64,000 nucleotides of DNA from Sthenelais limicola (lineage: Eukaryota > Annelida > Polychaeta > Phyllodocida > Sigalionidae): positions 21,518,684 through 21,582,683 of the forward strand of contig OW804102.1 in assembly GCA_942159475.1 (NCBI GenBank). Reading direction: 5' to 3'. Within the stretch, counting starts at the first letter, position 1. The number at the start of each line of letters is the position of its first letter. Shown here piece by piece: positions 6,161-59,100 of this stretch. The notes below the pieces were generated by a model. It was not told the origin of the DNA. It ran no database searches and saw only the letters and a program-made list of their open reading frames with translations. Position numbers and translations under genes: made by a program.

Positions 6161-6206
6161 ATGGAACAGTGAATTACCGCCTGATGGAACAGTGAATTAC
6201 CGCCTG
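6161..6206 (+). repeat. 23-bp tandem duplication at LINE 5' junction
   Basis: The unit, starting ATGGAACAGTGAATTACCGC, occurs at 6161-6183 and 6184-6206. It contains most of the target-site sequence that recurs after the LINE poly(A) tail. Confidence 0.9.
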
Positions 6207-6209
6207 ATC
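6195..6209 (+). repeat. Target-site duplication, 5' copy
   Basis: AATTACCGCCTGATC here is repeated exactly at 13114-13128, directly after the poly(A) run. The first two A bases could belong to the tail, so the duplication is 13-15 bp. Confidence 0.9.
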
Positions 6210-7231
6210 GGACTTCCGGTTTAACCTCGAACGTAAAGAGACGCCTCCTTGCTAGGACAACTAATCTTCTCTTTTTTTTCAGGTTTGGATAACCATCAGG
6301 GCTCAAGGATAAGCTGAACTGAACATAAACCTTCAGGGATTCTTCTGAAATTAAGTTCAACCCTTGTAAAGCTTTGGTTTTCTCATATCAAACATCGGAA
6401 ATTCTTGGACTCTCAAAATCAACGTGGTTCGCGCCATTTTGTCTAGTAGCAGCTAATCCTCGGATTATCGTCCCCATCGGAGAAATCAAAACCATCTCAG
6501 CCTGACGGACTAGAACACTCAGGACAAAGCAAAATAAGAACAAACTGCATCACAAACGGATGGATTCTGTGCAACAGGATTGATAACTCCTATAACTATC
6601 CCTTCAAGTACGAGCAAATGGATTAACGCAGGTTCGCTCCTTCTCACAAATGGGAAGCTCGCCGGCTTACAACTCTAGCTCCAGACAAAAGGATTGAAAA
6701 GGGAACAAAACCCAGAAATATCGCCAGACAAGGTTTGAAACCAAAGTGAAACTGTTTGTGTGTAAATGATTAGTAAACCAACTTTGACATTATAACCCCG
6801 CATAAGACTTAGTTACGATAAAGTTAATCTTTAATGCAAAGCATACCCTCTGTGTCGCCATCTGGCGAGTTAGTTGAAAAACAAAAATCAGTATAGGAAG
6901 TTGTGAACTCTCTCACTAGAGGTCGTGCCAAGCAGGAACAACACGAATTCCCTCCGTGCCGCTTGTAACCTTAAAACTGAGAAAGAACAATATCTGACGA
7001 TCAAGTAATACAGGGAATCCGTATAAATCAGAAAAGAACTCTCAAATCCGAGGAGAACATGGTCTAAGAATATCCAAATACCTCGCAATAGAAAAAGGCT
7101 AAGGGCAAATCACGCCAAGCGGAAGTACTAGCCGCCATTGTACCGGAAGAGAGAAAAAGGTAAAACATCCAGTGTATACGTACGAACCTACACCCGACAA
7201 ACCGGGTGCAACACGGATTTGCGCCAAGGAT
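6210..7231 (+). promoter_or_regulatory. LINE 5' UTR, presumed internal promoter
   Basis: About one kilobase precedes the first ORF1 ATG. The ORF1 frame is open back to 7103 but has no ATG before 7232. LINEs of this type carry an internal promoter here; no specific promoter motif was identified. Confidence 0.5.
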
Positions 7232-8851
7232 ATGTCTGCCACCACCGCTAACGGCGACAACGGTAACACCACCGCCAACGGCGACAACGGTAACACTAAA
7301 AAGAGACCTCTTGACGCTTCCCCCGAAGCTAATAAATCCCTGGCTAAACTCCCCAAGCATAGTGATAGAGAATACGAAGCTAAAGACATGGCTGGCGGAT
7401 CCACTATGGAGGTGGATAACACAAACAAGGTCCCAAATAAGGTCTCAAATGAACAGAACGCCAGTAAGTCCAAGGAAAAAGCTGCTGAATCCGGGCTTAA
7501 AACCTTACTCGCAAAAATGTCCCAAGAGAGGCAGAGGAGTAGCCAACAGGAACAGCAAGATTTTGAAGAACTCAAAAAAAGAATCGAGGAACTCGAGGCT
7601 ATTAGAGATGAAGTGAAGGAGGTACAATCTGACACTAACATCCTTAAACAAGACATGTCTGATGTGAAAGATTATAACAGTCAGAGGGACATCGCCATGG
7701 GCGGCTTTGATGACAGACTAAGATTCCAAGAAGAGGAGATGAAGGCAGTCAGAGGTGAATTGGCTTCCACATCGACTCCTAAAGACACAGACTGCATCAA
7801 ACAAAAGAGAGATGAACAAGAAAAGGACAAGGAGTTTATTCTTCAAGAAACTATCAAATTGGAGAGGAACTTACTTGTTTTAGGCATCAAGTCGAGAGTC
7901 GAAGAGTCAAACAATGATCTATTCGACAAGATTAACAAGGTAATCACAGAATACCTAATGCTTCATAACATAACAGTGAGAAGTGTTATAAGGATCGGCA
8001 AGAAAGATGATGTGCCCCTAAAAATCGAATTAGCATCTGTTGAACAGGCCAACATGGTTTATGACGCCAGACTGCGACTCAAACAGTTCGACGAAGAGAA
8101 TACACCCAAAGGCAAGGGAATGAACATCCGAAAGGATACACCATTCATCGTCCGCCAAAGGCTGGCAAAAGCGAGGGTTATATGTGCAGCAGCAAGAGCA
8201 AAACACTATGAGGTAGAGCAATTTGGCACCAACATTAAAGTAAATGGCATTCACTACCGGCACGACCAGTTGGACGGCGTCCCAACCGAATTGCTCCTAT
8301 CTCAGCTCTCAAAGAGGCAAGACGACAACACAGTAGTCTTCTTCTCATCTGACAACCCATTGTCCAACCATTTCAATTCTCCTTTCTTCCTTGACTGCCA
8401 AAGATTTGACCACGTGGAGCAATACCTTTTCTACCAAAAGGCCAAGATCGCCGGCGACCCTGTAAAACCTGCACTGGCCTTAAAAACAAAAGACCCAGTG
8501 GAATGTAAACGGTTTATGGGAAATGTGTTTGACGAGAAACACAGATGGCCTATCCATAGACAAGAAGTCCTACTCAAGGCGCTGCGGGCAAAAGCAAGAC
8601 ACAACGAGGTAGTCAGAGATTATCTCCTTTCGACCGGTGATAGAGTTATTGGGGAAGCATCCCCAACCAACAAAACATGGGGGATTGGTCTAGGCCTAGA
8701 CAACCCTAATGTTCTGGATGTGAGCATATGGCCCTCAGACGGCAACCTGGTCGGTAAAATGTGGGCAAAGGTCCGCGACGAAATTAGAAGGGATACTCCA
8801 CAAAATGCCGTCGAGGAATCATCCATGGAATCTAGTGAAGGGCATAATTAG
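7232..8851 (+). CDS. LINE ORF1 protein: coiled coil, RRM-like domain, C-terminal NADAR domain
   Basis: The 539-residue protein starts at the first ATG of the frame, 7232. Seen in order: an N-terminal polar tail with two copies of TANGDNGNT; a Glu/Lys/Gln-rich coiled coil (about 96-142); an L1-ORF1-like RNA-binding region (about 211-345) with ERNLLVLGIK, VIRIGKKDDVPLKIEL and FIVRQRLAKARVI; and a NADAR domain (about 364-525). NADAR hallmarks are FFSSDNPLSNHF, FDHVEQYLFYQKAKI with the family Glu, LLSTGDRVIGEASPTNKTWG and LVGKMWAKVRDEI. Known: ORF1 proteins bind LINE RNA as trimers, and NADAR-fold enzymes act as N-glycosidases on riboflavin intermediates or remove ADP-ribose from guanine bases. 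Inferred: the element carries an enzyme that may act on ADP-ribosylated nucleic acid or NAD metabolites. The domain looks complete; the usual Asp before the WG motif is Asn (PTNKTWG). Confidence 0.93.
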   Translation: MSATTANGDNGNTTANGDNGNTKKRPLDASPEANKSLAKLPKHSDREYEAKDMAGGSTMEVDNTNKVPNKVSNEQNASKSKEKAAESGLKTLLAKMSQERQRSSQQEQQDFEELKKRIEELEAIRDEVKEVQSDTNILKQDMSDVKDYNSQRDIAMGGFDDRLRFQEEEMKAVRGELASTSTPKDTDCIKQKRDEQEKDKEFILQETIKLERNLLVLGIKSRVEESNNDLFDKINKVITEYLMLHNITVRSVIRIGKKDDVPLKIELASVEQANMVYDARLRLKQFDEENTPKGKGMNIRKDTPFIVRQRLAKARVICAAARAKHYEVEQFGTNIKVNGIHYRHDQLDGVPTELLLSQLSKRQDDNTVVFFSSDNPLSNHFNSPFFLDCQRFDHVEQYLFYQKAKIAGDPVKPALALKTKDPVECKRFMGNVFDEKHRWPIHRQEVLLKALRAKARHNEVVRDYLLSTGDRVIGEASPTNKTWGIGLGLDNPNVLDVSIWPSDGNLVGKMWAKVRDEIRRDTPQNAVEESSMESSEGHN

Positions 8852-8899
8852 TGGATAAGGCAGCAAGAAGTGAATATTCGTGTGCTTGTATTGTTAAAA

Positions 8900-11800
8900 A
8901 TGCAGCAAACCGATATTCAAAACTTCGGCGCCTCCACCAAGCTAGTGTCTCTTAATATAAATGGTTTAAATAATGCCACCAAAAGAAAAGCCATATTTTT
9001 ACAGTTTAATCAGTTACAGGACACCATAGTGGCTCTACAGGAAACCCACTCAGTGAAGGCAAAAGAAAAAATATGGCAATCCCAATGGGGAGGGCAACTC
9101 CTTTTTGCTCATGGCACCTCTGCATCGAGAGGAATCATGTTTCTTGTTCCAAAAAGCCTGAAAAAGTGTATTGATTCTTATGAAGCTGACCCAAATGGTA
9201 GATGGCTGCATCTTACATTAAATATAAATAACACGGTCTTTTGTATTCTAAGTGTGTACGCCCCAAACAGTGACAAACCAAAGGAACAGACGGCCTTCCT
9301 AAATGAGATGAAAAACATCTTAGGTCTAATCAAATATGACAGATTAATTGTTCTAGGTGATCTAAATGCAGACATCACGTACAAACCGTCCAGCATTGCA
9401 AGCATAAAATTGCTCGATTTTATCAATGAACTAGACTTAGATGATATTGTCAGCGCAAGAAGTCAAGGCCTCCCGAACATTACCTGGTCAAGACTACAAC
9501 AAAACTCCAGACTCGACTATATTTTTGTATCTAATAACATGTCTAACAGAGTTCACAAATGCGAAATTGTTTCTAGCATTCACTCTGATCATAATGAAGT
9601 TAGAATAGATATGTATATGGGCGTGGCCGCCAGAGGTAGGGGGTACTGGAAGTTTAACACCAAGCTCTTACTTGACGATACCTTTGTGAATGGTGTAGAA
9701 AGAGAATATGAACGCACTAATAATGAAGCGCTCGGTTCTAAAGTTAAATGGGAATTCTTTAAGCTTAGAGTCAGGGAACTCGCAATCTCCAGATGTTGTG
9801 AGATAGCCAAATGCAGAAAACTTAAGAATGCTATGTTAAAAGAAAAACTTGATGTATTAGATAAAAAAAGAAGGTTAACTCTCGAAGAAGCGAATGAACG
9901 AAAAGCTATTTCTCAAGAATTAAGGGAGATGGAAATGGTGAGGGCAGAAGGAGCATTAATAAGATCTAAAGCCAAATGGGCCACGGAGGGAGAGAAACCC
10001 TCCAAATACTTTTGTGCATTGGAAAAGTTTAAAGCTGGCAAGAAGGTGATTTCAATTCTTAATGTAAATGGTTCTATCACTTCTAAACAAAGCGAAATAT
10101 TGGACGAAGGTAAAAATTACTACACTTCTCTCTACAAAAAAGTGCCTGTTTGTGACATAGCTGGTGAAGAATTTTGTAACCCTGTTCACGCCGTCCAACT
10201 TGGTGATGAAGACAACAAAATATTATGTAGAGAAATAACTCATGACGAAGTCGAAAAAGTGTTAAAGACCTTCAAGAAAAACAAATCGCCTGGGTGCGAC
10301 GGTTATACTGTTGAATTTTACTTGTACTTTTGGCACTTGATCAAACCCCTTTTTATGTGTATGTTAGAAGCTTGTCTAATCGACGGTGAAATGACCGATA
10401 ATCAGAAAAGGGGCATCATAAGCGTCATTCCGAAAAAGGATAATGATCTACTTCTGATAAAAAATTGGCGTCCAATTACCCTTCTTAATCTAGATTATAA
10501 ACTCATCTCGAAAACATTATCAAATAGACTGGCATCCTCCCTCCCTAACATTATAAATGAGGACCAGCTCGGTTTTGTTAAAGAACGATTTATTGGCACA
10601 GCGATCAGAAAGATCGATGATATTCATTCTCTCCTTGAATATAAGAAAGAGACTGGGATTATAGCGTCTGTGGATTTCTCCAAGGCGTTTGACTCCGTAG
10701 ATTGGTCATTTATCAGAAAAGCGCTAGAGTCGCACAATGTTCATAATACCTTTATTGAGTGGATCGAGACTCTCCTCCAGGACTCAAAAGCGACCTTTAC
10801 TAATAACGGTTTCTCCTCGCAATGGTTTCCAGTTGAGAAAGGTGTCAAACAAGGGGACCCAATATCAACATCCCTGTTTTTAATTGCAGTAGAGAAGCTC
10901 GCCGAGCAGTTAAGAATTGATGAAAACATACAAGGTATTAGGCTCCAAGAAAACAATGCGAAAATTGTACAATTCGCAGACGACCTTACATTGACTGTTA
11001 GAAATGAATTCTCCTTACTAACCGCGGTAAGAAAAATGGACAGATTCGCAGAAGCATCTGGCTTACATATTAACCCCGGGAAATCCAAAGGTTTTTTAAT
11101 AGGCGGAATTACAATCTCAAATAGAGACCTATTACAGTTTGATTGGACAAATAAGATGAAAGTCTTAGGCGTCACTTTGCTTAACCCTAGGAACGAAAAA
11201 GAAATGTACAAGATAAATAGTGAAAGTCTCTTGGCAAAGGTAAAGAGTACAATTAATGAGTGGAGAAATAGATATTTAACCGTTAAGGGTAGAATACTGA
11301 TTTGTAATGTGTTCTTACTTCCTGTTTTTCAACACGCCCTATCTTGTATACACATGGGTGAGGATTTACTCAAAGCGATTAATGATGTTATTCTGAATTT
11401 TGTATATGGAAAAAAACACCACAGTATTAGTGCAAACTTCATGGCACAAAAACCAGAAAATGGTGGGTTAGGTTTAAGGTTAATACATGAGATTTACGAC
11501 ACAAATAGAATCATGTGGACGCAAAGGATTCTTCATAAAAGACACAGTTCTTGGTTCAAAGCGCTAGAAGCCTTTCACGAAAGAGATATTGAAAATGTGT
11601 TTTTATGTAGGTATATGCCTAAACAGTTCTTAAATGAGTTTTACAAAGATATATTCAAGGTATGGAATAAATTCTATTTCAGCAACAAACCGGAGAATGT
11701 GAATCAAATTCTCAGAGAAAGAATCTGGGCAAACAGATTTATCAAAGAAAAAGGCCAGATGTTTTACTGGCAGGAATGGATAGATCATGGTATTACTGCA

Positions 11801-12703
11801 GTCGGAGACCTCTTCAATGAGAAGAGGAACTTTATGTCCTTGCAGGAGATAGCAAAAAACTATCAGTTCCACCCATCGTTTTATTCCAGAAAATCCTTAA
11901 GAAATGCCATTCCTGGTGAATGGACTAGATTGATTAAGCTAAATGAACCTGTTCCCGCAGATGATTCGGTTGATATAAAAATTGGTAATACCAATGTCAA
12001 CTTGGTAGGGTTGACCGCCAAAAAAGTGTATGACCAAATGATTAGTAATAAGAAAACGAAAGACGAAAAGCTTGACAAATGGAAGGGCTTATTGGGACTA
12101 ACCCAAAGACAATTCAATGAAATTGATTGGAAAGTCATATTCAAACGTCCGTACTTGTCTTCAACAGAGTCAAGGCTTCACGTTTTCCAATATAAACTTT
12201 TACATGGCACTACTGCATGCAATGGTTATTTAGCGCAAATTCGGGTAAAAACACATCCTAAGTGTGACTTCTGTCCTGGTGAAGACAATATTGTTCACTT
12301 TCTCGTAGAGTGTCCCAGAACCAAATCGCTATGGTCCGAGATACTTGATTGGATATATAACTCAGGTTATTTAAATGACGGTAAAAATGGTGACATTCTG
12401 TTTAAAAGAAAAAATGGAAGAATCTCTGTCAGGCCAATAGATATAATCTTTGGCATTGAGCAACCTAATGTATCGTCCAAAATTGTCAACTGGTTAATTC
12501 TCCAAACCAAGTCTTTTATTTACAGACAGAAGTTATTCGACAATGGTAGAATTGATATGTTAACCACCTTGTATGAGTTAAAGATGAGATGCAGAGTGGT
12601 GTTATACTCTTTCAGGATTCAAATGGTCGGTGATAGAGAAAAATCTCTATGGAAGAGAGTACAGGGGGACATTGAAGAGCTAATCTCAATACACAAAGGT
12701 TGA
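8900..12703 (+). CDS. LINE ORF2 protein: APE endonuclease and reverse transcriptase
   Basis: The 1267-residue protein starts at ATG 8900; the frame is open upstream to the ORF1 stop. Endonuclease (about 14-240) signs are VSLNINGL, the catalytic Glu in QETH, VLGDLNADI, DYIFV and SIHSDHNEVR. Reverse transcriptase (about 450-760) signs are SPGCDGYTVEFY, NWRPITLLNLDYKLISK, SVDFSKAFDSVDW, GVKQGDPISTSLF and the catalytic FADD box (about 692-695, Phe in place of the common Tyr). A C-terminal CCHC finger lies at C1122, C1125, H1133 and C1138 (CDFCPGEDNIVHFLVEC), as in zf-RVT. All catalytic residues appear intact. Known role: nicking genomic DNA and reverse transcribing the LINE RNA at the nick. It lies 48 bases after ORF1 in the same frame. 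Confidence 0.96.
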   Translation: MQQTDIQNFGASTKLVSLNINGLNNATKRKAIFLQFNQLQDTIVALQETHSVKAKEKIWQSQWGGQLLFAHGTSASRGIMFLVPKSLKKCIDSYEADPNGRWLHLTLNINNTVFCILSVYAPNSDKPKEQTAFLNEMKNILGLIKYDRLIVLGDLNADITYKPSSIASIKLLDFINELDLDDIVSARSQGLPNITWSRLQQNSRLDYIFVSNNMSNRVHKCEIVSSIHSDHNEVRIDMYMGVAARGRGYWKFNTKLLLDDTFVNGVEREYERTNNEALGSKVKWEFFKLRVRELAISRCCEIAKCRKLKNAMLKEKLDVLDKKRRLTLEEANERKAISQELREMEMVRAEGALIRSKAKWATEGEKPSKYFCALEKFKAGKKVISILNVNGSITSKQSEILDEGKNYYTSLYKKVPVCDIAGEEFCNPVHAVQLGDEDNKILCREITHDEVEKVLKTFKKNKSPGCDGYTVEFYLYFWHLIKPLFMCMLEACLIDGEMTDNQKRGIISVIPKKDNDLLLIKNWRPITLLNLDYKLISKTLSNRLASSLPNIINEDQLGFVKERFIGTAIRKIDDIHSLLEYKKETGIIASVDFSKAFDSVDWSFIRKALESHNVHNTFIEWIETLLQDSKATFTNNGFSSQWFPVEKGVKQGDPISTSLFLIAVEKLAEQLRIDENIQGIRLQENNAKIVQFADDLTLTVRNEFSLLTAVRKMDRFAEASGLHINPGKSKGFLIGGITISNRDLLQFDWTNKMKVLGVTLLNPRNEKEMYKINSESLLAKVKSTINEWRNRYLTVKGRILICNVFLLPVFQHALSCIHMGEDLLKAINDVILNFVYGKKHHSISANFMAQKPENGGLGLRLIHEIYDTNRIMWTQRILHKRHSSWFKALEAFHERDIENVFLCRYMPKQFLNEFYKDIFKVWNKFYFSNKPENVNQILRERIWANRFIKEKGQMFYWQEWIDHGITAVGDLFNEKRNFMSLQEIAKNYQFHPSFYSRKSLRNAIPGEWTRLIKLNEPVPADDSVDIKIGNTNVNLVGLTAKKVYDQMISNKKTKDEKLDKWKGLLGLTQRQFNEIDWKVIFKRPYLSSTESRLHVFQYKLLHGTTACNGYLAQIRVKTHPKCDFCPGEDNIVHFLVECPRTKSLWSEILDWIYNSGYLNDGKNGDILFKRKNGRISVRPIDIIFGIEQPNVSSKIVNWLILQTKSFIYRQKLFDNGRIDMLTTLYELKMRCRVVLYSFRIQMVGDREKSLWKRVQGDIEELISIHKG

Positions 12704-13072
12704 ACCTTCCTGCTCACTCGCATTGTGACTCCTCTCGCTAAAGAGAGACTGATGTTGTATTCCCTGTTTATTCCACTGTCTGATTTATTCTCCTTACCGC
12801 ATGTCTACACCCCCGAAGAATTATGTCCCCTTTTTTGTTTCTATTGCATAAACTACTCATTCGCATAACCATGTCTTAGCATTGTAACAGCCCAGATGGC
12901 AGGCAATTGAATAAAGTCTGTCGCAAAAACAAAAAAAATGTATCAATCAATTGTACCGCAAACTGTACTATTTTCTATTATCATTGTTAATCAAGGAGTC
13001 TGCAGCAGCAGAGTTGAATTGTGTTACCTGTTCTCGACTGTATCTTGAATATATGTTTGGAGAAGCTGGATA

Positions 13073-13078
13073 AATAAA
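13073..13078 (+). terminator. LINE polyadenylation signal AATAAA
   Basis: AATAAA lies 7 bases before the terminal A run. A second AATAAA is at 12910-12915, upstream of a shorter A-rich stretch. Confidence 0.75.
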
Positions 13079-13081
13079 CTC

Positions 13082-13084
<3 letters not shown>

Positions 13085-13113
<29 letters not shown>
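13085..13113 (+). repeat. LINE poly(A) tail
   Basis: A pure A run reaches 13115; its last two bases overlap the target-site duplication. Confidence 0.95.
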
Positions 13114-13117
<4 letters not shown>

Positions 13118-13128
13118 ACCGCCTGATC
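13114..13128 (+). repeat. Target-site duplication, 3' copy
   Basis: An exact copy of 6195-6209. Confidence 0.9.
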
Positions 13129-22900: not shown

Positions 22901-25900
22901 TAGCAAAAACAACTGGACAAAATCCTCCAAAATTTGGTAAAATGACCTTTAGATGGGTTGGAAAAGAACGGAACAAAAAGTAGAAAACCTTTAGTTTTTG
23001 ACTGATGTTAACTGAATGCAACAAAAAGGAAGCAATAGTGTCTTCAGCAGCTTTTATGGAATGCCATGTGAATTATTTTGCATTGTTTTATTTTGACACA
23101 ACTTAATTGCTGTCACCTCATATGTTAATTGTTTCTTCTAGGAAGCACATTAATACAGATTGCAGGTGTAATTGAAGCAATTGAACTAATAGAACCATTT
23201 TTTTCTGACTGACAGTTTTGTGCTTGTATAAGGCCATTATGCTCTCATGATTCATTATTCCTTTAATGTGAAGTTATAAAAAACAAAAAAACAAAAACTA
23301 TTTTCTTTTCAGCTCATCTCTTCTGCTTTGTTGAATAAAAAGTCAACTCCATGTCTTACCTGTGGGACAAGGACATGCTTGATCACATTGTTCATCCAGT
23401 GACGGGTCAATACATTTCGCTCTTCTTAACTCACAGGAGTTTGAATATGTAATTTCATTAGACCCACAAACAGGTCGGTAGATTTCAGCACAAGGAAATG
23501 AACATGGAGGGTCTGAAAAATAGAATTTAGTTTTGTACAAGAGGAAAAGAAAATGAGAATTGGATCTCAACTAGAGTGATATTCTTTTTCCGGTATTTAT
23601 AGGGTATTGTTATAAATTGTTTTTGCAACTGCAAGGGCTATCCCCCAGATGTTATTTTATTAGAATTATGGAGCTACACCCTGTCCAGCCTCTGAAGAAC
23701 CTAAACCCCAATGCTAGCCTATACCGGTACTCTTTGATATCTAGGTTCTACAGAGGCTGGACAGAGTGTATCTAGGTATGAATAAGTCAAGTCAAGCTTC
23801 CAGTTCTTAATCTTCTTTATTACAGATTTTGGTCATCGGCGTCTGACATATCAATATTGCCAGTTAGAGTAGGAGCACCGGGTTGAGGAGAAATCCTTTT
23901 CATGACCTGGAGTGAGAGTCTATCCTTCATTGCTTAAATTATCTCCTGACTGCACAAGGTCTGAATGTTCTTTCACTACTGTTCATGTTAAACATCTATT
24001 CACTCATTTGTATTCATATTTGCATATCTCGTGTACCTCATGAAACTTGTGGAGACTGACATTTGAACACCTTAAGCACCTTAAACACCATCTTCAGGAG
24101 AGATGATGGCAGACATTAACATTTCTAATAACATGGATCTGTTCCAGAAATATGAGAAACAAAAATGTTTCTTTTCTTTACTGTTTGGTTCTTATTGTTA
24201 GAAAGTAGAAGAGTGGAATCTTAGCGATGAATGAATGAACTGAGTATCTAAAGATAATCCCAAGGTAATCTGATTAGTTTTTGTTGGTTTATTGTTGTAC
24301 AATTATGTTCAGCAGGTGACTACCTTCATCAGAGATAATTGACTACTATCAAATGCATGAGTGGTATCAAAGCTCCATTCTCAGTTATTACAACAAAAAT
24401 AACACTGATACATTTGATTCAAACCAAGTACCTATGGGATGCTGTAACATAATAACAGGTGTTATCTTAGAGTGCAGCTTTAGAATGAGCACTACAAGTT
24501 TCACACATGTACAAGTAGTTTTACCAGTAACATGAATTTTCATAAATTGTTATGCTTTGTATAACATAATCTGTTGTAGAACATAATTATTTATTCCTGG
24601 TATAACGAAATAAGAAGAAAAGCATCCACTTGAAAGCTAGTGAAAACAAAAATACCCACAAAATCTTAATATTTGGGAAATATTCCTCACTATCACTAAA
24701 ATCAAAAAGAAAACTTCCAGGACTCCCACTATAAAGTGATATCTCTTCCTACCTCGCTAATGATATTATAACCTAGTGGAATACAAATGGCCTAGGCATC
24801 CTCTTAAATAGGTATTAATAAGCATATGTATGCCTAATTAGTCCTTCCTGTAATTGACAAGTGCAGGCCGACCAATAGGGGGCCCACTCCTGATCATTAG
24901 ACTAGAGGTCACCATAGGGGTAATATATATGCCATGAAAGATCAAAATTTAGTATGCTAGTATGGGTATACATTATATATATATGACACAAGGAGGTATA
25001 ACAACATCTTGGAAAGTAGAATATATGTCTTACCTGTGGTGCATGGACATTTCCCATTACACTGTATATTGATGTATGGGTTCCTACAAGCTGCCTTTCC
25101 TAACTCACACAAGTTGGAATAGGTTACCCCATTAGATCCACAGACAGGTTGGTACTCAGTAGTACAAGGATAATCACATGGGGTAGCTGGAGTACATGAG
25201 AAACAGAAATTGATCTCAACCAATGTAAAATCCTTTTGATTAAAGGAGTACCAATACCAATGGGACTGCCAAATCATATCAATTAAATTTAATGCAAAGT
25301 TTACTTTTTTAGGAACTTGATTATATATATATTGTAGATGAAAGAGTGATTCACTCACCCCAACTCACTCTTACTCACTCACTCCTATTCACTATTACAC
25401 ACCATTTGATATTGAAATGTTGTGAAATTTTCTTGAATTAGTGTGGAACATTTTGGATCATTTAATGAACCACCTGTCTATGTATTGCATGATTTATTGG
25501 CACGTCTCCATATTAATAGAGGCAGCCACACCAATGTATAAATGGAATGGATCAATCCAGGATTTATTTTTTAGCCCTCTGTACCCAAAAGTGAAACGAT
25601 TCATGAGAATCAACCATTCTATTCCCCCAGATTTGACATCACATGTATGAAACATTTAATTTTTTTAGACACTTTAAACACCATCTTTATGAGAGAGGTG
25701 GTGATAGTCTTTAACCCATTCAGGCCGCGAACTGCTTTAAAGCATTCCCACGCGTGTGGCCGCGTATTGCCTTAACGCACTCCCACGCATTTGGCCGCGT
25801 ATTGCCTTAAAGCACTCCCAATACATAGGACGCATAATGCGTAAAAGCACTCCCACGCACAGGACGCGTAATGCAATAAAGCACTCCGTGGGAAAGGACG

Positions 25901-34725: not shown

Positions 34726-35790
34726 GTCGTGAGCTAGTCACTCCCTGGTCTTGACTGATTTACACCTCACTATTTTGCGAAGAAAATAAAGAAAAATGGG
34801 AGCGATTTGGAAAATATATCAGGCGACGAAACAACAGCATTTTTCAGCTTCAACATTATATAATATTTCAGCTACTTGAGGCTAATAACTGTCCAATTTT
34901 GTAAAAAGAAAAAAAGGTGAGATGGGTAAGTGGCGAATCAGGTTATGCATCTGTGTCTATAGTTTGGTCCTGTATATATGCGTTCAACGGCTAATGCAAT
35001 CCCAGCGTTTCGTGGGCATGTAATATGTTATACATTCACACTTGGATAGTTTCACTATTACTTGGTGCATATAATGACAGAAGGACCAATAATTGCAACA
35101 CAGGCCAAATAGGATTACGGATTCAATAATTCTGTAAGTAATTGCTTTGAAAGCCACTAAGTAGGCCTATGATGTGAACATGATATTAATCGACATCAAT
35201 GTCTACGCTCCTCTCATTTCATCTCATTCTCACAATCCCATTAATTAAACCCTATATTCTCAATCTGAAGTGCAATACAATATGCATGTGCGCCACCTAT
35301 AATCTTGATTCTCATAAAATGATGGGAGTTGTATGTCAGTGTAAAAGCTATATAAAACATGTTCAGCATGGAATATTTAAAAGGGATTTGATGTAAATAG
35401 CCATGTATTTTCCATGATTCAATAAAACAAGACATCATCTTTCCCAACATGGGAAGGTTTTTAGAGATCATTTGTACACAATTATACTGGTGGAAAGAAC
35501 CTTGAATTTTTCAATGAAAATGTTGCTAAATACTTGTATGTCAGATTTGAACTGAATCCCCTCTAGCATTCACTGTAATAAAACATGTGCGGTGAGACAC
35601 GCAAATTCCCCATTTTGTATCCTTTAGTTATTCAAATTAACGAATTTATCGTTATCATTAACCCCGCGCTCAAACCCTGATATAATAATTTCCATCGTCT
35701 ATAGGGGACCACTCCCCTCAGCCTCTCTATCTCTCCCCAACCCCCAACCCCACTCAGTTTCTGATAAAATGGTAAAGTCGTTTTGTAAGT

Positions 35791-35918
35791 AATATATCAG
35801 GAAGGATATAATTATATACAAAAACAACATTTGGGAATGGGAATGGACCTTTATAATATATCAGGAAGGATATAATTATATACAAAAACAACATTTGGGA
35901 ATGGGAATGGACCTTTAT
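35791..35918 (+). repeat. Exact 64-bp tandem duplication
   Basis: The unit beginning AATATATCAGGAAGGATATA occurs at 35791-35854 and again at 35855-35918 with no visible difference, so it arose recently. Confidence 0.95.
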
Positions 35919-53500: not shown

Positions 53501-54429
53501 ATACCTTTAACAGAGGTGGTTTTAATACGTTTTTATATCTCCTAATGTTAAAACCAGTTGAATCCAATTGATCTCTACTTTTCAAATATGATGGTATCTC
53601 ACTAATGCCCTGACCGATGCACTATTTTTTAATTACAGGTGAAAACATCATGCTCTGTAAGGTTGACCCTGGGATACGTGACCTGTGCTGGTTCGATGAA
53701 AATACTCTGGTAGTTGTGCAGTGGAGGAGTGACAATGTAACAAAGATCAGCATAGACAAAGATAATGCGACTTGCACGCACAGTCTCATAGACTCCGGTT
53801 ATTATGCCGAAAGAGTTGTATGTTCCACACATACTCAGCAAATTTATGTGACAGATAGTAGTAATTCCTTAATCAAGATTTACAACTTAACGTCTGGCAA
53901 GAAAGAAACATGGCTCCCACAGGGTATTCAGGGTCCATTCACTGTCAGTGTGAACCAAGAGTACATCGTTGTGAGTCCACTAAGGGCTACACATATCTCA
54001 GTGTACAACATAAAGAGAGAACCACTCTACAAGTTTCAGGTTTCTGAGAATGGCACAGTGGAGATGTCCTACACTTACTTGACCTCTCGAAGTGTGTGGC
54101 TGGCCACGACAGTCTTCCCTGACCACCAGCTATTGATTTATGACATGAACACTGATAACAGAATCCACACAGTAGGAGAGAGTTTAAACTACCCACTAGA
54201 TGTGGTTGGTGGCCCTAGTGATGGCTCAGTGTTTGTATGTGACTCTAGTAACAATAGAATCAGTGTGTTCACTCTGCAGGGTGACTTTGTGTCTAACCTA
54301 ACTCAAGTTAGCAAAGAGAAGCTATTGCCTTGGTCCATGTCCATAACACAGTGGGGAAGTTCCAGCATTATGGCTTTGAGTAGAGGTTCAAGTAAAACTA
54401 AAGAGCTATTAATCTGCAGCCTGCACTGA
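50574..54429 (+). CDS. Membrane-anchored NHL-type beta-propeller protein
   Basis: Three exons: 50574-50940, 52951-52989 and 53639-54429. All joins are phase 1, giving 398 residues. Exon 1 encodes an Asp/Tyr-rich and Pro/Ser-rich cytosolic-type tail (DDTQDYYFQPIDVDSQYDYI), a CCKSLPCWSW stretch, and one helix (ISIIGVFIIVAAVAGVACVF). Exon 2 is a 13-residue linker. Exon 3 encodes the C-terminal propeller of about 260 residues with NHL-like strands such as LCWFDENTLVVVQW, QIYVTDSSNSLIKIYNL and GSVFVCDSSNNRISVFTLQG. Known: NHL propellers bind proteins or RNA. A membrane-tethered one would be extracellular if the protein is type II, which is inferred. The start is the first ATG of the exon. Intron 1 carries two MITEs. 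Confidence 0.85.
50985..51818. mobile_element. MITE family 4, TA-flanked foldback
   Basis: 25-bp terminal inverted repeats start TGCCCCGTCTACACAGGGGC at the left, with one mismatch at the right. TA flanks both ends, as expected for Tc1/mariner-type integration. The inside is filled with inverted GCGATTTC/GAAATCGC units and a near-perfect palindrome at 51422-51456. It lies in intron 1 of the NHL gene. Confidence 0.9.
51972..52440. mobile_element. MITE family 5, shorter copy
   Basis: TTAAGCCTGGGTTCCACTGC at the left and CCAGTGGAACCCAGTTAA at the right are inverted. The inside has CTTCTTGATCAAAGAAGCGG. A larger relative is at 57438-59227. Confidence 0.85.
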
Positions 54430-56118: not shown

Positions 56119-59100
56119 TCAAGCTTCATCATTATTCTCAATCTTAACAAACTTAACTATACTGTCAGAATCAGAACCTCCATCGCGTTCCCCCTTTACC
56201 CACTCGATGTTATATATACAGCAGCTGCATATCAGAAAGATGAAAGCCAATACTGCCACAACACCAGGGATGAGTAAGGCAGTCAGTACATGCTTGAATG
56301 GATACACCTTGCGACCAATTACAAGGGATGAATCTGTAGAATCGTAATAACATTCAAACTTTCCAAAGCTCCTTCTGTCATTTAAGATGTCCATTTCTTC
56401 ATGTACGGCCACATCACTGGCTTGGGCATCGATTCGGCATGCATATATGGAACACTGAAAACAAAATTTATATAAAATGTGATAATGATAAAATAGAATA
56501 GTTATGATAAATTCAAGAAACAGGGCCTATTTTTACTTCACAGCATGGACCCGGAGAATGATCAGCATCTACCTCCCTGAATCTATTCAGCTTTAAATTT
56601 AAGGAGTGCACACTTACATTACGGCTCTGGCTAGCTTGTACAGCATCGGTGTAGTATGTTGCATTTTTCTCAGTGCCACACTGATTTTCATAGCGTACAT
56701 CGACTCGGAAACATGGGTAGGAGGAAGGTGGACACTTAGTCTTAGTGGGTCTACGCGCACCGGCCTCTCTATTACTGAAACAATGAAATATATACAATGA
56801 AGGGTGTTATATAAGGTTAGGATTCTTGGCTCCTCCTTCTGGGCGTGCACAGAGTGAGAGCCAATGAGAATGAGTCAGTGTAGGGCTCCTGATGTGGGGT
56901 CTCAATTCCTTTGTCACTATTAAGAAAGAACATTTAAAAAAATAGAAACAACATTCCTCACTTGTCATGAAGAAAATTCTTTTATCATTTATCAAAATTC
57001 TTTTATCGTTTGTCACTAAAGCCTACCTCTATCGATTTATCAATCATAAGAAAAGGCAATTTTGATTTGTTGAGCTTAAAAAAGAAAATATTTATTGAAA
57101 TATTAGGATTCTCCTCCTGCTGTCAATGAGCACGAGTCAGTGTGTGAGCACGTATGAGCTGCTCCATGTATAGATCTAAATGTATGTACCCTAGTGTGGT
57201 CGTAATTTAATCAAATTAAAAAAATGTGCCTTGAAGAGTGGTTTGGGAATCCATCTTGGACAGAATGGTCAGAGCTATAATATCCAATCGGGGATCGACA
57301 GGTATTGAAATGTCTCTAATATGACGATCTTTAACAGCAACGAAAGAGCTACATATTAAATCAGAAAGCTCATACAATAATATTCCAGTTTGTAGGCGAG
57401 CATCAAGGTCCTGTGCTGTGGTGAGCTGTTACAGACTAAAGCCTGGATTCCACTGCCACGCTACTTCTCCCGCTACTCCTCCCGTTTCTTTGGTCCTGCT
57501 ACTTATAAAAGCTGGAGCAAGTAGCGGGAAGTAGCCGCTTCAATTCAAACATGTTTGATTTGAAACGGCTACTTCCCGTTACTTCTAAAGTAGCGGGAGC
57601 AAAGCGCCCCCCCCCCCCCACACCCACTCAATGCTAAAAAGTGTACTTTTTTTGTTCCCAATTTCGCGGAGAAAGGGGTCATTTTTCAGGACCAAACGCA
57701 GAGCGCGAAATCAGAAATAAGGGTACCAATTTGCAGCTGAATTCCGCGAAATACTGAAACTGTTTTAGCATTTTTGCAAGTGAAATCCGCGAAATGCTGG
57801 AAAAGGGGGTTTCTTTGTGGCATAAAAAGCATATAATTATGACAGAATTTCCGCGTGCTGACAATTCACAGGATGATCTTATTACATAAGAACAAGCTGA
57901 AACACATGCATGGAGGAAATATGACAGATATAAGAGGTTTTCATGGAAAAGAACTTGCACTCCCCCCCCCCCCCGCCCCCCCCCCCCACACACACCTATA
58001 CATCTATCAATTTTCCTTCTCCTCCCCCTTTCCTCCCCCTCCCCGACTACCTCCCTTGCTCTCCCTCCCCTTTTATCCCCCCCTCCTTCACCTCTCCTCT
58101 TCTTCCTCCTCCACATTGATCCCCTTCCTTCTTCCTCCTGCCATTCCTACCTTCCTGTCCTCATCCTCCGTGCTCCTCCAGGAGGATGTTGAGGTGGGGC
58201 AGACGGAACGGAGATGGAGAAGGGGTTTGTAACAGGTCTAGTGAGGTAGTAGGACGGGGAGGAGAAGGAGGAGGAGGGGAGGAAACGGAGGAAGGGGAGA
58301 AGGAGTAGGGAGATGATATTTGGCTTCATTAAAGAATAAATGATACTCATTAGTTACCTGTCTGATTAACACCAACGTTATACTTTTATATACCTGTCCC
58401 GGGATAAATACATCTTTAAACTTCATTACTTCGTTCCCTTTTGTTACACTAGTTGTAACATATGTTTGTGAAAGTGGTATAAATTATACAAGACTCCCTG
58501 AAATCATAACAAGGGGTCCTTTTTGGCATAAAGTTTTCCGTGTTTTGCCACAAAAAGGCGGGGGGTAAAATGGGTATCATGTTAAGCAAGACTCCTTGAA
58601 ATGTGACCTGCTCTGCGAAAATGGGTCTTATATGCTTAGATATGAAATGTAAAATGTGTTTTAGGACATAATATGCTGCAAAAATTATGTTGATACGAAA
58701 AACAGAAGCCGAGATATAAAGTTCTGAAATATGATGTGTTGAAATGGGGTAAATAGCCAAAACTGCTGTACGGTTTTTACTTGCCGAACTTTCGTTAAAC
58801 CCTCATATGATTTTGAAATGCGCATCATTTTCAATAAATTAAATAATATATTGCCATTTTTCTGAAAATTTAAGTAATTCAAATCTGTTTTCAGTATCTT
58901 AATCATCAGAAAATTCTCTTTTGACTTCATTCAAATTTGAAACAATTTGATGGCATATAGGTTTCCATGGAGACCAGAATCCTGTTAAACGTCATTATTG
59001 ATGATTTGGATGTTCCATTTTAGCATCAAATTGTTCGCGTTTTGCCACAAAAAGTGTGTGTGTGTGTGTGGGGGGGGGTAACATGCCTTGAAAATTCGCG

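What the first reader, a model, noticed from the sequence alone, without database searches (positions are those of the whole stretch)
8321..8851. LINE ORF1 protein carries a complete C-terminal NADAR domain
In an otherwise intact L1/Tx1-type LINE, ORF1 continues past its RNA-binding part into about 160 residues with NADAR hallmarks: a VEQYLFYQKA helix with the family Glu, STGDRVIGEASPTNKTWG, and a closing GNLVGKMWAKVRDEI. NADAR enzymes are known N-glycosidases and guanine ADP-ribose hydrolases. A retrotransposon packaging such an enzyme with its RNA could remove ADP-ribose put on nucleic acid by host PARP-like defence or repair, or could use NAD metabolites. The fusion sits in an undamaged ORF, so it is probably maintained rather than accidental.
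Basis: partly seen in the sequence, partly recalled or inferred. Interest (0 to 1): 0.88.

Follow-up and report, generated by a model that had tools for sequence, protein, structure and literature searches.

The report
Jumping gene carrying a NADAR enzyme
A freshly inserted, intact LINE retrotransposon encodes, at the end of its first protein, a complete NADAR domain of the kind that removes ADP-ribose from guanine bases; such domains in oyster LINEs were mentioned in print in 2025, but what they do for the element is unknown and can now be tested.

The parts
6195..6209 (+). 5' copy of the target-site duplication (AATTACCGCCTGATC)
   Evidence: exact 15-bp match to 13114-13128; the first A's are ambiguous with the poly-A tail
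6210..13113 (+). full-length LINE, about 6.9 kb (5' UTR about 1 kb, ORF1, ORF2, 3' UTR, poly-A)
   Evidence: bounded by the TSD and poly-A; no second copy in the window by blastn
7232..8851 (+). ORF1, 539 aa from the ATG (GTG-started ORF of 559 aa listed from 7172)
7568..7684 (+). probable coiled coil of ORF1p, about residues 113-151
   Evidence: best heptad windows start at residues 113-124, up to 7 of 8 a/d positions L/I/V/M; simple count, no dedicated predictor
7832..8275 (+). probable RRM + C-terminal-domain-like RNA-binding part, about residues 201-348 (inferred)
8351..8788 (+). NADAR domain (Pfam match), ORF1 residues 374-519
   Evidence: PF08719 E=1e-20 (residues 394-539 of the GTG-started 559-aa form); structure match
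8417..8419 (+). codon E396, equivalent of E43 of P. nicotianae NADAR (E88 of E. coli C7 NADAR)
   Evidence: phmmer alignment to 8bau; same residue in 19 of 20 other rows, the miss (L029) being a wrong reading frame taken by my script
8438..8440 (+). codon K403, equivalent of K50 (K95 of E. coli C7 NADAR)
   Evidence: same residue in 19 of 20 other rows, the miss again L029
8654..8656 (+). codon E475, equivalent of E125, the Glu that marks the YbiA subfamily
   Evidence: same residue in 19 of 20 other rows, the miss again L029
8900..12703 (+). ORF2, 1267 aa from the ATG (GTG-started ORF of 1277 aa from 8870)
8948..9592 (+). APE-type endonuclease domain of ORF2
   Evidence: PF03372 E=1.1e-13
10427..11179 (+). 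reverse transcriptase domain of ORF2
   Evidence: PF00078 E=2.3e-39
12128..12334 (+). zf-RVT-like C-terminal region of ORF2
   Evidence: PF13966 E=2.6e-4, 22 bits, below its 27.5 cut-off
13085..13115 (+). poly-A tail, 31 A (the last ones shared with the TSD)
13114..13128 (+). 3' copy of the target-site duplication

Best explanation
The ORF1 protein of this young LINE has a C-terminal NADAR (YbiA-type) ADP-ribosylhydrolase domain. SHOWN here: domain, fold, retained catalytic residues, in-frame fusion in an intact and recently inserted element. INFERRED: ORF1p multimers coat the element's RNA through the middle part of the protein and so hold many NADAR domains on it; there the enzyme removes ADP-ribose from guanine bases of the element's RNA, and of its cDNA or target DNA, which would otherwise block translation, reverse transcription or second-strand synthesis. 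The most likely writers are guanine-N2 ADP-ribosyltransferases of the host or of invading microbes (pierisin/CARP-1/ScARP/DarT1 type) rather than PARPs. It is thus an element-borne repair or counter-defence function, as proposed for NADAR and macro domains in RNA-virus polyproteins. My estimate: NADAR domain real and part of ORF1p 0.98; catalytically active 0.75; guanine-ADP-ribose on nucleic acid as the relevant substrate 0.5; overall as stated about 0.5.
Against: Two ADP-ribose contacts of the P. nicotianae enzyme are changed: R79 (pyrophosphate) is G430 and D130 (water-mediated) is N480; the adenine-stacking Y84 falls in an alignment gap. 9 of 30 otherwise invariant columns are lost, while each of the 17 comparison rows keeps 30 of the 30 to 32 columns invariant in the rest; the window is the most diverged row of that set. 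Binding without hydrolysis is not excluded. E125 itself was not, in the passages I saw, mutated in a YbiA-type NADAR; its role rests on structural equivalence to D171. No second copy, so no dN/dS. RNA binding by the middle part is not shown. The host is unidentified, so whether it has a guanine transferase is unknown.
Confidence: 0.5

Rival explanations
1. The NADAR part is an ADP-ribose or nucleotide-binding or structural module without important hydrolysis: it docks the ORF1p particle onto ADP-ribosylated protein or chromatin (for example at DNA breaks) and so helps localisation.
For: R79 and D130 equivalents changed and 9 of 30 invariant columns lost. The SGNH esterase of other LINE ORF1ps binds phospholipids and liposomes and is suspected of a membrane-targeting role besides its activity (abstract of PMC3905857).
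Against: The Glu-Lys-Glu set is complete; a pure binder would not obviously need all three. None of the NADAR passages I read describes a NADAR as a pure reader.
Confidence: 0.2
2. The domain acts on small molecules: riboflavin-pathway intermediates (TIGR02464 function), cyclic ADP-ribose-type signals or NAD caps, sparing the element from a small-molecule immune signal.
For: Best curated NCBIfam family is 'riboflavin biosynthesis intermediates N-glycosidase' TIGR02464, above cut-off. Viral NADARs, phage ones above all, are proposed to prefer soluble ADP-ribose derivatives (passages of PMC9503650).
Against: A free enzyme would do this better than one fused to a particle protein (inference). The same paper favours macromolecular targets for NADARs of eukaryotic RNA viruses. 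E. coli YbiA, which I recall as a TIGR02464-type riboflavin-intermediate glycosidase, also hydrolyses guanosine-ADP-ribose (PMC11125620).
Confidence: 0.15
3. Passenger: the domain was picked up by chance from a host, viral or bacterial gene, and is hitch-hiking without selection; the young copy has simply not decayed yet.
For: Only one copy examined. LINE relatives L001 (complete ORF1, 345 aa) and L006 (partial) have ORF1s without a NADAR.
Against: The tail has diverged to about 30% identity from known NADARs yet keeps the catalytic set and 21 of 30 invariant columns, although much of this divergence could predate capture. NADAR is reported in several oyster Tx1 families and in a Gypsy lineage.
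Confidence: 0.12
4. Assembly artefact or chimera joining a NADAR gene to a LINE.
For: Single window; reads not available.
Against: The NADAR lies inside an element bounded by a perfect TSD and poly-A, in frame, ending 48 bp before the ORF2 ATG, with no N in the window; a similar fusion is reported in oyster.
Confidence: 0.02

Closest known systems
Crassostrea gigas Tx1 LINEs with YbiA-family NADAR domains in ORF1 (Repbase families noted in PMC12477816, 2025)
   Same: Tx1/L1-type LINE, NADAR in the ORF1 protein, YbiA subfamily
   Different: I saw only the text of the paper (section 5 part 1 and passages), not the sequences; position in ORF1, catalytic residues and intactness are not given there. 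Whether this window is one of those families or even the same species is unknown
[quoted passage not shown]
   Same: retrotransposon-borne YbiA-type NADAR, conserved across families
   Different: LTR element, domain in Pol rather than ORF1
Phytophthora nicotianae NADAR (PDB 8bau) and E. coli YbiA (2b3w)
   Different: stand-alone enzymes; R79 and D130 of 8bau are not kept in the LINE domain
NADAR and macro domains in RNA-virus polyproteins (passages of PMC9503650)
   Same: an ADP-ribose-removing domain fused to replication proteins of an RNA-based parasite
   Different: virus, not retrotransposon; function there also mostly inferred
SGNH/GDSL esterase in ORF1p of CR1, RTE, RTEX and Penelope elements (abstract and sections 12-13 of PMC3905857)
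   Same: hydrolase in the C-terminal part of a LINE ORF1p, active site conserved
   Different: different enzyme; those ORF1ps were reported to lack RRM domains, whereas this one probably has an RRM-like part

Membership tests
NADAR superfamily, YbiA subfamily | profile match above the curated cut-off over the full domain | tested here: met
   PF08719 75.1 bits against 35.1, profile 10-163 of 163; TIGR02464 80.8 against 73.7
NADAR superfamily, YbiA subfamily | YbiA fold (five core helices, two small sheets) | tested here: met
NADAR superfamily, YbiA subfamily | conserved Glu and Lys (E43, K50 in P. nicotianae) | tested here: met
   E396, K403
NADAR superfamily, YbiA subfamily | Glu in the last strand (Asp in the BC4488 family, His in phage NADARs) | tested here: met
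   E475 in GEAS; definition from passages of PMC11125620
NADAR superfamily, YbiA subfamily | other ADP-ribose contacts of P. nicotianae NADAR (R79, W89, R93, D130, W133) | tested here: inconclusive
   W89, R93, W133 kept (W439, R443, W483); R79 is G430, D130 is N480
NADAR superfamily, YbiA subfamily | hydrolysis of guanine-linked ADP-ribose | not testable with these tools
   needs the purified domain
L1/Tx1-type LINE | ORF2 with APE endonuclease and RT | tested here: met
   PF03372 51.9 bits against 24.5 and PF00078 135.7 against 29.6
L1/Tx1-type LINE | C-terminal zinc-binding (zf-RVT) region of ORF2 | tested here: inconclusive
   PF13966 E=2.6e-4, 22 bits against a cut-off of 27.5
L1/Tx1-type LINE | RT falls in the Tx1 clade on a tree with named references | not tested
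   tree holds no labelled Tx1 or L1 reference; nearest row P0012, 47% identity, joined at 100/98
L1/Tx1-type LINE | poly-A tail and target-site duplication from target-primed insertion | tested here: met
L1-type (coiled coil, RRM, CTD) ORF1p | RRM and CTD folds | tested here: inconclusive
NADAR-bearing Tx1 LINEs (C. gigas) | homologous fusion at the same place in ORF1 | not tested

The most novel reading that the evidence does not exclude
Some invertebrates use guanine-N2 ADP-ribosylation of nucleic acid (CARP-1/pierisin-type transferases) against parasitic nucleic acids, retrotransposons included, and this LINE lineage carries its own eraser tethered to its RNA particle: a DarT1-NADAR-like arms race in animals. 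This would give clam CARP-1 and animal NADARs a physiological role.
Probability: 0.15. Interest if true: 0.92.

Novelty: new member of a known kind. Interest (0 to 1): 0.55.

Why it matters
Among the hydrolase families tested in PMC11833690, NADARs were the only one that removed ADP-ribose from guanines in RNA (abstract and passages), and the roles of NADARs in eukaryotes, animals included, are called unclear (PMC11125620). A young, intact LINE with one on its RNA-particle protein gives a concrete setting in which to ask whether nucleic-acid ADP-ribosylation restrains transposons in animals. If the domain is only a passenger, it still is a clear case of enzyme capture by ORF1.

Tried and rejected
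Search for more copies in the host genome: the genome search (the same request 13 times) did not complete, so copy number, dN/dS and host identity are open. NADAR part scored among proteins of ORF1-like length: 0 of 800 candidates at E<=0.001. NADAR domain alone: 11 of 279 candidates, all 11 with PF08719; the 4 of 11 that carry an organism name are actinobacteria (Streptomyces, Nocardia). NADAR part and ORF2 as single queries in viral contigs: 4 and 3 stretches, no relative; ORF2 alignment in viral contigs: none of 80 stretches. ORF2 alignment in bacterial and archaeal genome contigs: 22 loci of 107 stretches, 9 of the 22 titled as symbionts of Bathymodiolus mussels (8 B. brooksi, 1 B. septemdierum) and so probably host contamination. 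The NADAR profile hit 0 of these 22, and tblastn of ORF1 found nothing at E<=1, but many are too short to hold ORF1; of the 7 of 22 whose ORFs I listed, L001 has a complete and L006 a partial L1-like ORF1 without NADAR, and L008 a different ORF1. This does not show that NADAR LINEs are rare.

A tRNA or known structured-RNA target of insertion: none found in the window; beside the junctions Tandem Repeats Finder shows only a 23-bp duplication and the poly-A. PARP-type marks as substrate: disfavoured by PMC11833690 and PMC13036486 (passages). No L1 ORF1p chain appeared among the 50 rows shown in each structure search with the middle part, whose model is too poor to judge. Alignments A4-A6 misaligned the ORF1 middle part and were not used.

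Rows dropped before the column count: P0002 (truncated start), L029 (my script took a wrong reading frame) and L031 (same protein as L030). Apart from the window, P0002 is the only row with neither Arg nor Lys at the R79 position. The tree used 28 of the 120 ORF2 hits listed and 5 loci.

Literature searches that gave nothing further on NADAR in retroelements: (listings only). Two mollusc LINE papers searched for the word (PMC11203168, PMC10294476) hold no 'NADAR' in the main text. PMC13092281 and PMC7824862, listed with one 'NADAR domain' each, were not opened.

Full report

ACTIVE SITE. 8bau numbering starts at -1, so chain positions 45, 52 and 127 of the phmmer alignment are E43, K50 and E125 of the paper. 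They align with ORF1 E396, K403 and E475. In E. coli C7 NADAR the counterparts are E88, K95 and D171: D171 exchanges lost efficient activity, E88Q was inactive while E88A seems to have had a smaller effect in vitro (the passage is cut), K95 is essential for efficient hydrolysis, and none of the substitutions described in the passages at these sites rescued from DarT1 (passages of PMC11543638). E125 itself was not mutated in the passages I saw. W89, R93, W133 and K75 are W439, R443, W483 and K426. R79, a pyrophosphate contact, aligns with G430, D130 with N480, and Y84 falls in a gap. In an alignment with 17 other NADARs (10 from the protein collection, 7 from viral contigs; 3 rows dropped, see Tried and rejected) mean identity is 30% over 157 columns; 21 of the 30 invariant columns are kept, and the nine lost ones include G429 (now Met) and D480 (now Asn); every other row keeps 30 of its 30 to 32. 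So the domain is diverged but has its catalytic core.

THE ELEMENT. It is bounded by AATTACCGCCTGATC at 6195-6209 and 13114-13128 with 31 A at 13085-13115: about 6.9 kb, full length and young. ORF2 (ATG 8900, 1267 aa) has APE endonuclease (E=1.1e-13), RT (E=2.3e-39) and a sub-threshold zf-RVT hit. Its RT finds 1059 of 4931 candidates in the protein collection at E<=0.001, the best 120 listed; on a tree of 34 rows the window joins P0012, an unnamed protein (source tag lgn), with 100/98 support at 47% identity. No other copy lies in the window. The middle of ORF1 looks to me like a coiled coil followed by RRM and CTD of an L1-type ORF1p; this rests on a heptad count and a poor model, not on any significant match.

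RELATED ELEMENTS. Of 22 LINE loci found in bacterial genome contigs, 9 in assemblies titled as symbionts of Bathymodiolus mussels, none has a NADAR by profile, but few hold an ORF1. L001 has a complete 345-aa ORF1 that ends at the part that looks to me like the CTD, L006 a partial one. This suggests, without proving it, that the NADAR is an addition to the end of a standard ORF1; the sequence similarity of these ORF1s to the window's is not significant.

PRIOR ART. PMC12477816 (section 5 part 1 and passages read) reports a Gypsy lineage in Ectocarpus with NADAR in Pol, and ORF1 proteins of several Tx1 LINE families of C. [quoted passage not shown] Searches for NADAR with retrotransposon, for YbiA/LINE/ORF1/NADAR/transposable element (at least 3 terms), for 'NADAR domain' with transposon, and for DUF1768 with retrotransposon found 104, 1267, 3 and 0 papers, of which 20, 20, 3 and 0 were listed. 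Judged from titles and abstract starts, no listed paper other than this one reports the fusion; I opened one more for its NADAR passage (PMC7853720), which is about nematode genes. The kind is therefore known; this is a member of it with the active site, completeness and insertion age worked out.

MECHANISM. From what I read: NADARs cleave ADP-ribose from guanine N2 in DNA, eukaryotic members included (PMC11543638); [quoted passage not shown] the bacterial NADARs tested do not, or hardly, remove PARP10 uracil marks (PMC13036486). Clams have a guanine-N2 DNA transferase, CARP-1 (PMC11209040); that NADARs erase its marks is stated in PMC11543638 to be assumed, not tested. For NADARs in RNA-virus polyproteins PMC9503650 supports a macromolecular target, while elsewhere it posits that viral NADARs may prefer soluble derivatives or RNA-processing by-products. 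Put together: an ORF1p-tethered eraser of guanine ADP-ribose on the element's own nucleic acid. Fold and residues are shown; activity, substrate, RNA tethering and benefit are inferred. The precedent for a hydrolase on a LINE ORF1p is the SGNH esterase, whose active site is conserved across clades (sections 12 and 13 of PMC3905857).

LIMITS. One copy, no selection test, host unknown, own-genome search unreachable, Repbase elements not available for comparison.

Noticed in passing
L008 1-1362 and 1771-5595 (contig NZ_CAHJWD020000152.1, Bathymodiolus brooksi symbiont assembly, probably host DNA): A LINE with a 1275-aa ORF2 (APE and RT above cut-off, zf-RVT below it) follows an ORF1-type frame, open at its 5' end, with CCHC zinc knuckles and a GDSL/SGNH esterase. 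Esterase ORF1s are reported for CR1, RTE, RTEX and Penelope, without structural RNA-binding domains (PMC3905857); this ORF2 looks L1/Tx1-like to me, but its RT sits on a long branch.
   Followed up: partly
window 6161-6206: A perfect 23-bp tandem duplication that contains most of the target-site sequence lies directly at the 5' junction of the LINE: either a 5'-junction duplication made on insertion or a pre-existing repeat.
   Followed up: no
P0002 (132 aa, unnamed, source tag lgn): Among 11 NADAR hits this has the highest identity to the window (40%), and it also lacks the GR loop; its 4.6-kb contig could be another NADAR retroelement, but I had no tool to fetch it.
   Followed up: no
literature: PMC7853720 (passage): A Medea (toxin-antidote-like) locus of Caenorhabditis tropicalis holds extra copies of genes whose C. 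elegans homologues share NADAR/YbiA-like domains: another hint of NADARs in animal genetic conflict.
   Followed up: no
window 35790-35918: Two perfect copies of a 64-bp unit in tandem.
   Followed up: no
window 24960-25364 (-) and 53617-54429 (+): Kazal-type protease inhibitor exon (PF07648 E=1.1e-10) and an NHL-repeat open frame of 270 aa (PF01436 E=1.7e-9): probably host genes, consistent with an animal genome.
   Followed up: no
window 56122-56526 (-): Open frame with a weak, below-cut-off match to the beta subunit of calcium-activated potassium channels (PF03185 E=0.0012).
   Followed up: no
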